The notes under the pieces are model-generated. The model was given only the letters and a program-made list of their open reading frames with translations. It searched no databases and was not told the DNA's origin. 64,000 bases of DNA. Source: Enterococcus mundtii (lineage in GTDB: Bacteria; Bacillota; Bacilli; Lactobacillales; Enterococcaceae). The stretch covers positions 434,001 through 498,000 of the forward strand of contig NZ_AP019810.1 in NCBI RefSeq assembly GCF_013394305.1, written 5' to 3'. The position numbers and the translations under genes are program-made. This document shows, in pieces, positions 33,484 through 35,843 of the stretch. Numbering within the stretch: the first letter of the stretch is position 1; each line of letters begins with the position of its first letter.

Positions 33484-33660
33484 GAGACACCTTCCTTTTC
33501 AAAGCTATTTACATGATCATTACATTATAAATAAAAATAATATTAATACAGATATTAACACCTGTTTCATCTATTAGTCTAGCACTTAATGAGTCATTTG
33601 TGTAGTAAGAAGCAAAAAAAAACATACATTTTTGTCACATAGACAAAATGTACATCTTTT

Positions 33661-34212
33661 TTATTGATTTTGATATTTTTTCCCTAGAATGATCAGGTCA
33701 TTTTCTTGATTGCCCATATTGGCAACTTTTGGCAAATGTCCCCAAACTGCATATCCATTTTTGAGAAATAACTTTTTACTTGCCTGATTCATATCAAAAA
33801 CAAATGCAAGCACTGTCTGGATTTTTAAACGATGCAGTTGAGTTTCCACAAAGGCAAGCGCGGCCTTACCTAAATGATGACCACGTGTCACTAGGTCTAG
33901 ATAAATACTGATTTCCGCTGTCTGTTGATACGCAGGCCGACCATAAAAATCACTAAGGCTGATCCAACCGACGATATGATCGCCATGACGCATTACCCAA
34001 AGCGGTCTAGAATCAGCATGATGCGCCTCAAACCAAGGGAGCCTCGAGTCAACCGTTATCGGTTCCAGGTCCGCCGTTGCTTGCTTCGATGCGATAGACT
34101 GATTATAAATGTCCACAATTCGCGGTAGATCCTTGATCGTTGCATAGGTATACTTGATATCGATTGATTTCGCCCCCTTTATTTTTGAATAGTATAACAC
34201 GTTTTTTATCAT
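33661..34212 (-). CDS. GNAT-family N-acetyltransferase (phosphinothricin acetyltransferase-like)
   Basis: The acetyltransferase domain covers the protein: YTYATIKDLPRIVDIYNQSI at the start, VGWISLSDFYGRPAYQQTAE, then YLDLVTRGHHLGKAALAF, the acetyl-CoA pyrophosphate-binding loop, and NQASKKLFLKNGYAVWGHLP near the end. This is the Pat/YncA-like group that acetylates small amines such as phosphinothricin or methionine derivatives. The start is problematic: ATG 34212 has no ribosome-binding site and lies upstream of a good extended -10 (TGTTATACT). AGGGGGCG at 34171-34178 is placed ideally for an ATC codon at 34164. The shorter version would have 167 residues. Confidence 0.8.
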   Translation of the reverse strand: MIKNVLYYSKIKGAKSIDIKYTYATIKDLPRIVDIYNQSIASKQATADLEPITVDSRLPWFEAHHADSRPLWVMRHGDHIVGWISLSDFYGRPAYQQTAEISIYLDLVTRGHHLGKAALAFVETQLHRLKIQTVLAFVFDMNQASKKLFLKNGYAVWGHLPKVANMGNQENDLIILGKKYQNQ

Positions 34213-34263
34213 CGTTATACAGCAAAAAAAAGAGTTGTATCGAAACCAATGATATTACTACTA

Positions 34264-34380
34264 TTAGTGTTTATTCTTCAATCTTTTTGATTGTTGAATG
34301 AGTTTGAGCGCACGTTTTCGTGTTTTGATATTCGGGCTGTTCAATCGTCTATATGCGCTTGAAAGGTCTTGCTTCTCCAT
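34264..34380 (-). CDS. 38-aa basic protein co-transcribed with rpmG (putative metal-homeostasis micro-protein)
   Basis: Starts ATG 34380 after a GGGGGGAT ribosome-binding site and ends TAA 34264. The product begins MEKQDLSSAYRRLNSPN, followed by a lysine/arginine-rich helix IKTRKRALKLIQQSKRLK. Short proteins of this look in enterococci and lactobacilli are, as I recall, sometimes labelled putative metal homeostasis proteins. It lies 35 bases downstream of a cysteine-poor L33 gene that carries a Zur-box-like site, so expression under zinc shortage is expected. The basic charge suggests RNA or ribosome contact, which is an inference. Confidence 0.68.
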   Translation of the reverse strand: MEKQDLSSAYRRLNSPNIKTRKRALKLIQQSKRLKNKH

Positions 34381-34415
34381 TTTATCCCCCCATTTTCTAG
34401 AACATTCATTTCACC

Positions 34416-34565
34416 TTATTTTACTTCTGTAAATAGCATTTTCTTTCTTAACTTTGGCGAATATTTCTTTAACGTTAATCGTTCCGGTGTATTTCTTTTG
34501 TTTTTACTCGTCAGATAGATTCGTTCACCCGTTTCTTTGCATTCTAATGTAATGTTTTGGCGCAT
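34416..34565 (-). CDS. rpmG: Ribosomal protein L33, zinc-independent (C-minus) paralogue
   Basis: The 49-residue protein [20 protein letters not shown], then [20 protein letters not shown], is bL33. Only one of the four zinc-binding cysteines remains (Cys9): the first pair reads CKET instead of CxxC and the second reads YSPKL instead of YCPRL. Bacteria use such C-minus paralogues to replace zinc-loaded L33 when zinc is scarce. The promoter and a Zur-like palindrome directly upstream agree with this. It leads a two-gene operon with the 38-aa protein gene. Confidence 0.93.
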
Positions 34566-34642
34566 GTTTTCTCCTTCTCTCACTCTTTTTTAGCAATTCA
34601 ATCGTTGCCCTATTTTCAGCTTCGATCAAACCACTCAAATTT

Positions 34643-34665
34643 TAAATAGTAATGATTACGATTTA
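34643..34665 (-). promoter_or_regulatory. Zur box
   Basis: A 23-bp near-perfect inverted repeat with arms TAAATAGTAAT and ATTACGATTTA around a central G matches the Gram-positive Zur operator pattern (TAAATCGTAAT, N, ATTACGATTTA) with a single base change. It begins nine bases beyond the -10 box and so covers the transcription start of rpmG. Confidence 0.85.
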
Positions 34666-34673
34666 TAAAATAT

Positions 34674-34702
34674 AATATACGCTAGTAGCGAATTACTGTC
34701 AA
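34674..34702 (-). promoter_or_regulatory. Sigma-A promoter of the rpmG operon
   Basis: Minus-strand TTGACA (34697-34702) and TATATT (34674-34679) with a 17-base spacer, immediately upstream of the Zur box. Confidence 0.85.
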
Positions 34703-34826
34703 TAAAAAAACGAATGAAAATAACTTCAAATGAATGGATACTCATTTTAAACAATTAAAAATAACAAAAAACTGATTTTCAACAGGCAACTACGTACGCC
34801 ATCGAATGACAGTTTTTTTGTCTTTA

Positions 34827-35843
34827 CTATTGTTTTACAGTTGTTTCTAGTAGTTCAAACAGATCGGCTAGTACAAACTCTGCTTGTGGCTCATCTGCCC
34901 AAATACCAACCATACTACCCATCACTGGTAATTCGGTATTGCTGACTACAGTGGATGTCGAAATTGTCGCTAGTGCGTTTTTTGCTGTATCAAAGGAGTA
35001 ATGTCCTTGTTCACTTGTTTTTCGACCGATGACCCAATACCAGTGATCGTTCGTATTCACTACTTGATGCCCTTGATCAAGTAAAAATTCGGCAGAACTG
35101 ACGTGATAGTTGTCCCACCCTGCTGTCCAATAGGCAATCACTAAGTCTTGATCGAATCGACCAAATTGTTCTTTTTCCTCGTAGTAGATGCCGTCGTTAA
35201 ATACGATCGGAATCATCCCATAGGTTTTGACCAGTTCAGCCAATTGATTGGTATAAGTGACAAAATCGCGATACTTCCCAGACTGCTGGAGTCCTCGCCA
35301 TCCGCCATCAGTTAAATCATTGGCAAATTCATCGCAACCTATATTGAAGGAATTAGTGATCGTTGAGAAGTAGCTCACATATTTTTCAAGTAGTGCTTTG
35401 GTGAAAGCGACCGCTTCTTGATTATCCAAATCAAGTGTTCGAATCGACGTTTGATAACAAGGGTGTTCGATGCCTAATTGTTGCATTCCTGTTAGAATCG
35501 CGTCCATATGGCCAGGGGTATTGATAAGCGGGATCACTTCCATGTTTTCTGCCTTAGCCACACTAGCTAACTCTGCCATTTCTGTTTCCGTCAAATAAGT
35601 ACCATTAGGATCCTCATAGTACTGTTTTGTTCCTGCAATCAATGCTTCTTTGACTGATTGACTGGAATAAGTTTTCCCTTTGACAGTCAGCGTCATGTCA
35701 TCCAGTAAAAAGCGTAATCCGTTATTTCCCAGCGCAAAAGAAATCCCCGTGTATCGACATTGACTTGCTTTTTTTATGATCTGGATCAATTGTTCTTTCG
35801 AAAAATATTTACGGCCATTATCAATCAATAAAACCTTTTTCAT
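34827..35843 (-). CDS. Glycoside hydrolase family 20 beta-N-acetylhexosaminidase-like enzyme
   Basis: A 338-residue TIM-barrel protein starting KKVLLIDNGRKYFSKEQL. The family hallmarks are VIPLINTPGHMDAIL on one barrel strand and the catalytic Asp-Glu pair in NIGCDEFAND. Also present are VFNDGIYY and the substrate-binding tryptophans of VIAYWTAGWDNY. No signal peptide is seen from ATG 35843, which has GTGGAGG just upstream (the frame is open to 35897 without such a site). It therefore acts in the cytoplasm, probably on imported GlcNAc or GalNAc oligosaccharides. It lies downstream of the DeoR/M24 pair and may share their transcript. Confidence 0.88.
   Translation of the reverse strand: MKKVLLIDNGRKYFSKEQLIQIIKKASQCRYTGISFALGNNGLRFLLDDMTLTVKGKTYSSQSVKEALIAGTKQYYEDPNGTYLTETEMAELASVAKAENMEVIPLINTPGHMDAILTGMQQLGIEHPCYQTSIRTLDLDNQEAVAFTKALLEKYVSYFSTITNSFNIGCDEFANDLTDGGWRGLQQSGKYRDFVTYTNQLAELVKTYGMIPIVFNDGIYYEEKEQFGRFDQDLVIAYWTAGWDNYHVSSAEFLLDQGHQVVNTNDHWYWVIGRKTSEQGHYSFDTAKNALATISTSTVVSNTELPVMGSMVGIWADEPQAEFVLADLFELLETTVKQ

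What the first reader, a model, noticed from the sequence alone, without database searches (positions are those of the whole stretch)
34264..34702. Zur-controlled operon of a zinc-free L33 paralogue and a 38-aa protein
A sigma-A promoter with exact 17-bp spacing, a Zur box with one mismatch at 34643-34665, an L33 that has lost three of four zinc cysteines, and a tightly linked basic micro-protein all lie within 440 bases. The micro-protein is not characterised; its co-regulation suggests a role on ribosomes or in zinc-saving under zinc limitation.
Basis: partly seen in the sequence, partly recalled or inferred. Interest (0 to 1): 0.7.

Follow-up and report, generated by a model that had tools for sequence, protein, structure and literature searches.

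The report
Zinc-shortage operon with conserved basic microprotein
An enterococcal operon predicted to switch on when zinc is scarce encodes a zinc-free version of a ribosomal protein together with a tiny, highly conserved basic protein that belongs to a family already named but still without a known job, and genome comparisons suggest that job is at the ribosome.

Summary
In detail: on the minus strand at 34264-34702 lie a sigma-A-type promoter, a one-mismatch Zur box, an L33 paralogue with one of four zinc cysteines, and, 35 nt later, a 38-aa basic ORF. The Zur box is the best of three in the genome; the other two precede zinc-free S14-L32 and adcA. The microprotein is not new: it is NCBIfam NF038026 (RsaX20_sORF, "putative metal homeostasis protein"). 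Published work reports a gene of that name under AdcR in Streptococcus agalactiae, a Zur motif before RsaX20 in Staphylococcus aureus, and a member upstream of adcAII in Enterococcus faecalis. I found no described function. New here: codon statistics show selection on the peptide. In 58 of 80 named loci the adjacent upstream gene is a zinc-response gene, most often zinc-free S14 (24). The gene tracks zinc-free S14 even where unlinked (30 of 31 carriers against 4 of 20 listed non-carriers; 4 of 4 against 1 of 17 inside Streptococcus). I think it most likely acts on the zinc-free ribosome, probably the S14-bearing small subunit. That step is inferred, not shown.

The parts
34697..34702 (-). -35 hexamer TTGACA
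   Evidence: identical in two E. mundtii records
34674..34679 (-). -10 hexamer TATATT, 17-nt spacer
34643..34665 (-). Zur box (one mismatch), separated by 8 nt from the -10, so over or next to the likely transcription start
34571..34576 (-). Shine-Dalgarno AAGGAG of rpmG
34416..34565 (-). rpmG paralogue, zinc-free type L33, 49 aa, Cys9 only
   Evidence: paralogue comparison
34386..34391 (-). Shine-Dalgarno-like GGGGGG of the microprotein gene
34264..34380 (-). 38-aa basic microprotein, NCBIfam NF038026 (RsaX20_sORF)
   Evidence: purifying selection; two-helix model
33661..34212 (-). GNAT acetyltransferase gene downstream; operon membership uncertain (no convincing terminator found before it; own promoter possible)

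Best explanation
This is a zinc-sparing operon. Zinc-loaded Zur sits on the box at the transcription start and blocks the promoter; when zinc falls Zur leaves and rpmG plus the microprotein are made (inferred from sequence and from relatives). The zinc-free L33 then replaces zinc-binding L33 in new ribosomes (established for this kind of paralogue elsewhere, recalled). The 38-aa product is a translated, basic two-helix protein with no conserved metal-ligand set that binds the zinc-free ribosome, most likely the small subunit carrying zinc-free S14, as an accessory subunit or assembly or stability factor (inferred). It is probably not a metal binder despite its database name.
For: Regulation: one of three Zur boxes in the genome at up to 3 mismatches, the other two before zinc-free S14-L32 and before adcA; three Fur-family genes, one of which scores far lower with the Fur and PerR models than the other two do and is so the Zur candidate. 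Translation: over 28 codons in 80 distinct DNA sequences, median pS 0.85 against pN 0.12 and entropy 0.49, 0.19 and 1.42 bits at codon positions 1, 2 and 3. Ribosome link: in 58 of 80 named loci the adjacent upstream gene is a zinc-response gene (S14b 24, COG0523 GTPase 14, L33b 10, AdcA-like 7, L32b 2, IIYPPLVE protein 1); 54 of 80 have a zinc-free S14, L33 or L32 within 1.5 kb on the same strand, while 0 of 16 zinc-type L33 control loci have any of these marker genes beside them (one has a second zinc-type L33 match). Zinc-free S14 is present in 30 of 31 carriers against 4 of 20 listed non-carriers, and in 4 of 4 against 1 of 17 in Streptococcus, where the two genes lie on different contigs. 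The two plasmid loci inspected have the same kind of operon, with Cys-free S14 in both and Cys-free L33 and L32 in one. Protein: pI 11.5, no Cys in 80 of 80 named loci, two-helix model at pLDDT 89.
Against: No direct evidence of ribosome binding. Two of three genomes of the window's genus that lack the microprotein still have zinc-free S14, so S14b can exist without it. Seven loci have it directly behind an AdcA-like gene with no other marker gene within 1.5 kb, and 14 have it directly behind a COG0523 GTPase, which would equally fit a zinc-uptake or metallochaperone role. Genome samples are not phylogenetically independent, and the 20 non-carriers were those listed, mostly streptococci. The carrier with the weakest over-cut-off score (G285) lacks S14b. 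No structural match.
Confidence: 0.55

Rival explanations
1. The microprotein serves zinc uptake or trafficking: it works with AdcA/AdcAII or with the COG0523 GTPase (a zinc metallochaperone type) rather than on the ribosome.
For: Directly behind COG0523 in 14 and directly behind an AdcA-like gene in 7 of 80 loci; an AdcA-like gene starts within 200 nt downstream in 17. In E. faecalis it lies 21 bp upstream of adcAII, and the authors suggest exploring a role in zinc acquisition (PMC8966984, passages). The product name says metal homeostasis.
Against: No Cys in 80 of 80 named loci and no His in 37 of 80; no signal or membrane segment by eye. Of 17 listed streptococci without it, 16 lack zinc-free S14, although AdcR and AdcABC were present in every oral species screened in PMC12707111 (passages); whether those are the same species was not checked.
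Confidence: 0.25
2. It is a ribosome hibernation or translation-slowing factor of zinc-free ribosomes, like the mycobacterial Mrf-Mpy pair (recalled), rather than a stable subunit or assembly factor.
For: Same regulon logic; NCBIfam holds a hibernation-factor-recruiting GTPase MRF that matches the COG0523 neighbour weakly, and COG0523 genes are frequent neighbours.
Against: The neighbouring COG0523 protein scores 22.8 bits against a cut-off of 375 for MRF. The neighbours were not searched for hibernation factors, and there is no evidence on translation rate.
Confidence: 0.12
3. The conserved element is a regulatory sRNA (RsaX20) and the ORF is incidental.
For: The S. aureus locus was described and kept as an sRNA with uncertain translation (PMC5826253, passages).
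Against: Selection acts on amino acids: pN 0.12 against pS 0.85. No Rfam match in 33500-35000 up to E 1. Purine-rich, Shine-Dalgarno-like stretches precede most of the ORFs printed, and the window ORF.
Confidence: 0.03
4. The microprotein gene is a passenger of the zinc regulon with an unrelated role under zinc limitation.
For: In 15 of 16 Streptococcus-labelled loci and in the 16 genomes of genus g19 it has its own AdcR-type or Zur box directly upstream, and in those 15 streptococcal loci no marker gene beside it, so no partner is fixed by linkage there.
Against: Recurrent operon membership with zinc-free ribosomal proteins in several gene orders and several genera and co-occurrence with S14b when unlinked.
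Confidence: 0.05

Closest known systems
NCBIfam NF038026 RsaX20_sORF (putative metal homeostasis protein)
   Same: Near full-length match over the cut-off; the family core is YRRLKSPNIKTRKRALKII.
   Different: Nothing that would exclude it; the window gene is a member. Here it is second in an operon with zinc-free L33 and has N instead of the usual K before SPN.
Zur-controlled zinc-free ribosomal protein operons (rpmG2, rpsN2, rpmF2) of Firmicutes, including Enterococcus faecalis
   Same: Zur box, Cys-poor L33; E. faecalis Zur regulon listed with rpmG2 x2, rpsN2 x2, rpmF2 x2, adc genes and yciC (review PMC6103462, passages).
   Different: The passages of the review that I saw do not list the microprotein.
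S. agalactiae SAK_RS00910 under AdcR
   Same: Same annotation name; up under zinc restriction, AdcR-dependent (PMC11580457, passages). The S. agalactiae member of the family found here (L167) has an AdcR-type box with one mismatch at -70.
   Different: Other regulator family, and L167 has no marker gene beside it. That L167 is the orthologue of SAK_RS00910 was not checked by locus tag.
Mycobacterial AltRP operon with Mrf (recalled)
   Same: Zur-controlled zinc-free ribosomal proteins with a non-ribosomal helper.
   Different: NCBIfam describes MRF as a GTPase with a 402-position model, not a 38-aa peptide.

Membership tests
NCBIfam NF038026 RsaX20_sORF | Profile score above the curated cut-off of 30 bits over most of the 32 positions | tested here: met
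   69.3 bits, positions 1-31 of 32
Zur regulon operon | Zur box at a sigma-A promoter | tested here: met
Zur regulon operon | Zur protein encoded in the genome | tested here: inconclusive
   Three Fur-family genes over the Pfam cut-off; C1:591338 is the candidate by elimination; none reached an NCBIfam cut-off with the stretch given
Zur regulon operon | Derepression on zinc depletion or in a zur mutant | not testable with these tools
   No expression data for this organism
Zinc-free (C-minus) L33 | L33 family with the CxxC...CxxC zinc site broken | tested here: met
   PF00471 E 1.8e-18; one of four Cys kept
Ribosome-associated protein | Binds ribosomal particles | not testable with these tools
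   Only indirect: basic, linked to and co-occurring with zinc-free ribosomal proteins
Metal-binding protein | Conserved Cys, His or acidic metal ligands | tested here: not met
   No Cys in 80 of 80 named loci, no His in 37 of 80; the only invariant acidic residue is D5. Two further relatives have one Cys each (L048; L200).

The most novel reading that the evidence does not exclude
The NF038026 microprotein is a dedicated extra component of the zinc-free ribosome of Bacilli: a ribosomal protein made only under zinc starvation that has no zinc-binding counterpart and sits on or matures the small subunit that carries zinc-free S14.
Probability: 0.35. Interest if true: 0.75.

Novelty: new member of a known kind. 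Interest (0 to 1): 0.45.

Why it matters
Zinc-free ribosomal paralogues are usually thought of as one-for-one replacements of zinc-binding subunits. A conserved peptide that travels with them and has no zinc counterpart would mean that the zinc-free ribosome needs something extra. Relatives were found here in enterococci, vagococci, streptococci, lactobacilli and, by inference, staphylococci, including species that meet zinc starvation in their hosts, and the job can be tested directly by one deletion and one ribosome pull-down.

Tried and rejected
Pfam and PHROGs gave no family for the 38-aa protein. The PDB sequence search gave only chance-level hits (best E 0.32), and Foldseek's best E was 2.9 (among the 50 of 153 matches listed, the highest query TM-score, 0.78, is a designed armadillo-repeat protein, which says little for a 38-aa hairpin). 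Rfam: no match in 33500-35000 up to E 1.

Phage hits (5 records) were not taken as phage genes: the one record inspected is an unverified, unannotated contig in which COG0523, microprotein and AdcA lie side by side, the microprotein-AdcA spacing being close to that reported for E. faecalis; the other four were not inspected. An intrinsic terminator after the microprotein gene was sought and not found convincingly (z -0.91). The leader before rpmG folds better than shuffles (z -3.1), but its stem was not tested for conservation and I draw nothing from it. L33 as the key partner was considered and set aside: 9 of 9 genomes of the genus with zinc-free L33 have the microprotein, but four of the 13 carriers have it without that L33 (Fisher p 0.06).

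Rows dropped: could not read L037 and L048 with my motif filter, so they are missing from its context table. One search found 271 relatives and kept the best 80, which favours relatives close to the query; all 80 were used. Alignment A1 used 30 of the 34 distinct sequences printed; alignment A2 for the fold used the window protein plus 52 of the 60 distinct relatives printed. The 20 non-carriers are those that one search listed out of 365 without a match. The marker AdcA is a BLAST match at E 1e-6 to one AdcA protein and may include other metal-binding lipoproteins. Shuffles were mononucleotide shuffles, a weaker control than the dinucleotide shuffles. AdcR-type boxes were counted at up to one mismatch in 250 nt without a shuffle control; their constant place at -58 to -75 in streptococci is the argument, and five further boxes outside Streptococcus are not used.

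Full report
WHAT IS THERE. The window is G000:C1:434001-498000 of a 3.3-Mb genome. It lies in the genus that holds Enterococcus mundtii: a contig of genus-mate G012 has exactly the length of the E. mundtii Pe161 chromosome. On the minus strand, a promoter TTGACA-17-TATATT (34702-34674) is followed after 8 nt by a Zur box at 34665-34643, an ATG-started 49-aa L33 (34565-34416) with AAGGAG ahead of it, a 35-nt gap and a 38-aa ORF (34380-34264) with a GGGGGG run ahead of it. The box has one mismatch in 22 fixed positions, is the only site at up to three mismatches in the window (0 in 100 shuffles) and one of three in the genome. The other two lie before zinc-free S14 and L32 genes (C1:125671) and before an AdcA gene (C1:2095286; 51% identical to an enterococcal AdcA). 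The promoter hexamers are unchanged in two E. mundtii records, where the box differs only in its last base.

L33. The genome has three L33 genes over Pfam's cut-off. The copy at C1:1157008 has four zinc cysteines, the copy at C1:409803 three, and the window copy only Cys9. In the review passages I saw, the E. faecalis Zur regulon already includes rpmG2, rpsN2, rpmF2, adc genes and yciC (PMC6103462), so the operon type is known.

THE MICROPROTEIN IS A NAMED FAMILY. It matches NCBIfam NF038026, RsaX20_sORF, "putative metal homeostasis protein", at 69.3 bits against a cut-off of 30; one copy in the genome. In print, from passages I read: S. agalactiae SAK_RS00910, same product name, up under zinc restriction and AdcR-dependent, function unknown (PMC11580457); S. 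aureus RsaX20 has a Zur motif, is co-expressed with the Zur regulon, and was kept as an sRNA because translation was uncertain (PMC5826253; the paper it cites for this, PMC4818034, shows no occurrence of Zur or zinc in its main text); a Staphylococcus epidermidis gene of that name rose together with rpsN and a zinc-transport protein in a step-down condition (PMC11298487); in Lactobacillus rhamnosus GG a gene of that name and an S14 gene appear in the same list of changed genes (PMC8973438); transposon mutants of an S. agalactiae gene of that name were under-represented in one of five sample types (PMC9239048); in E. faecalis a 40-aa ORF, OG1RF_RS12620, lies 21 bp before adcAII and was left for future study (PMC8966984). 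The primer named adcA-II_F in that paper encodes TDLSSAYR and is found inside the 40-aa family member of a record with E. faecalis as host, so I take that ORF to be this family. Searches that could have shown a functional study gave none that I recognised in the open-licence library; subscription papers are not covered, and I read passages, not whole papers.

IT IS A PROTEIN. Over 28 aligned codons in 81 sequences (80 distinct), entropy is 0.49, 0.19 and 1.42 bits at codon positions 1, 2 and 3, and median pairwise pS is 0.85 against pN 0.12. That is selection on the peptide. Ten columns are invariant among the 53 sequences of A2. It is basic (12 K/R against 2 D/E, pI 11.5), and none of the 80 named relatives has a Cys; two further relatives have one each (L048; L200). 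The AlphaFold2 model is a short helix 6-12, a turn and a long helix 18-37 at mean pLDDT 89, without a significant structural match. The name "metal homeostasis protein" therefore seems to rest on regulation, not on metal-binding features.

WHERE IT OCCURS. 13 of 16 genomes in the window's genus; 31 of 398 sampled genomes of the class over the cut-off; 3 of 398 sampled from the phylum, all three in the same class. A scan of named genomes gave 271 relatives, of which the 80 kept are from Enterococcus, Vagococcus, Tetragenococcus, Lentilactobacillus, Secundilactobacillus, Lactococcus and Streptococcus. In the plasmid collection 55 records match, from Ligilactobacillus, Lactiplantibacillus, Pediococcus and Levilactobacillus; of the two inspected, an L. 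plantarum plasmid reads rpmF, unknown, rpmG, rpsN, microprotein, amidase, zinc-binding protein, and an L. salivarius plasmid reads rpsN, microprotein; the rpmF, rpmG and rpsN products there have no Cys.

WHAT IT TRAVELS WITH. In the 80 named loci the adjacent upstream gene (gap up to 150 nt, same strand) is zinc-free S14 in 24, a COG0523 GTPase in 14, zinc-free L33 in 10, AdcA-like in 7, L32 in 2, a 125-aa unknown in 1, and none of these in 22. Counting 1.5 kb to either side on the same strand, 54 of 80 have a zinc-free ribosomal gene and 63 of 80 any of these genes; 49 of 80 have a Zur box with up to 4 mismatches within 2.5 kb upstream, against 1 of 1600 shuffles; of 16 zinc-type L33 control loci none has a marker gene beside it, though one has a second zinc-type L33 match. 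Of 16 loci labelled Streptococcus, 15 have no marker gene beside the microprotein gene but an AdcR-type box with one mismatch at -58 to -75. In the 16 genomes of genus g19 (staphylococci by inference; unnamed) it stands behind a Zur box at -69 to -78 with 1 to 5 mismatches in 16 of 16.

IT TRACKS ZINC-FREE S14. Zinc-free S14 (89 aa) is present in 30 of 31 carrier genomes and in 4 of 20 listed non-carriers; within Streptococcus (g7, named through contig lengths), 4 of 4 carriers against 1 of 17 listed non-carriers, although the two genes lie on different contigs there (Fisher p 1e-8 and 8e-4, without correction for shared ancestry). In the window's genus 13 of 13 carriers have S14b, but so do 2 of 3 non-carriers. 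Because AdcR and AdcABC were reported in every oral streptococcus screened while rpsN.2 is patchy (PMC12707111, passages), the microprotein seems to follow the ribosomal branch of the response better than zinc uptake.

HOW IT MOST LIKELY WORKS. Shown by sequence: promoter, Zur box, zinc-free L33, coding microprotein. Supported by relatives: zinc-regulator control and membership in zinc-sparing operons. Inferred: the microprotein binds the zinc-free ribosome, most likely with zinc-free S14 on the small subunit, as an extra subunit or assembly factor. Against this, seven loci pair it with an AdcA-like gene only and 14 put it behind a COG0523 GTPase, so a role in zinc uptake or delivery remains the main rival.

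VERDICT. A new member of a known regulon and of a named family of unknown function. The window itself is ordinary for an Enterococcus; the cross-genome association with zinc-free S14 is the part worth following.

Noticed in passing
L144, L146, L174, L175 (with L159): A stretch of 4.3-5.0 kb holding the zinc-sparing operon (IIYPPLVE protein, L33, COG0523, microprotein, AdcA) is 97-99.8% identical in E. cecorum, E. gallinarum, E. raffinosus and E. canintestini records, and 84% in E. avium: it looks recently transferred between species. One E. faecalis plasmid record (747 kb, typed conjugative) matches 47% of it at 95%.
   Followed up: partly
L005:603-980 minus strand (G000:C1, Zur-box-2 operon, outside the window): A 125-aa protein beginning MEIIYPPLVE follows zinc-free S14 and L32 and has relatives in 27 of 80 microprotein loci; no Pfam or NCBIfam match, no PDB match of note, only phrog_25006 of unknown function. 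A second uncharacterised member of the zinc-sparing operons; AlphaFold2 pLDDT 86.6.
   Followed up: partly
33661-34212 minus strand: The GNAT gene after the microprotein has an unclear start: GGGGGCG is followed by ATC rather than ATG, while a relative has an ATG near the corresponding place; the block before it is nearly identical among three strains and holds the inverted repeat GTATAAC/GTTATAC.
   Followed up: partly
L193: A record labelled Streptococcus carries S14b and the microprotein behind a two-mismatch Zur box, unlike the other 15 streptococcal loci; mislabelled sequence or transfer.
   Followed up: no
L202 (OR846602.1): An unverified phage record holds COG0523, microprotein and AdcA side by side, with spacing close to that reported for E. 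faecalis, suggesting host DNA in the phage collection.
   Followed up: partly
L146/L165, L159/L182, L175/L195: E. gallinarum, E. avium and E. canintestini have two microprotein loci each, in different zinc-response gene settings.
   Followed up: no
window 34566-34668 minus strand: The 103-nt stretch before rpmG folds more stably than shuffles (z -3.1, 2 of 200 shuffles as good); no Rfam match, conservation of the stem not tested.
   Followed up: no
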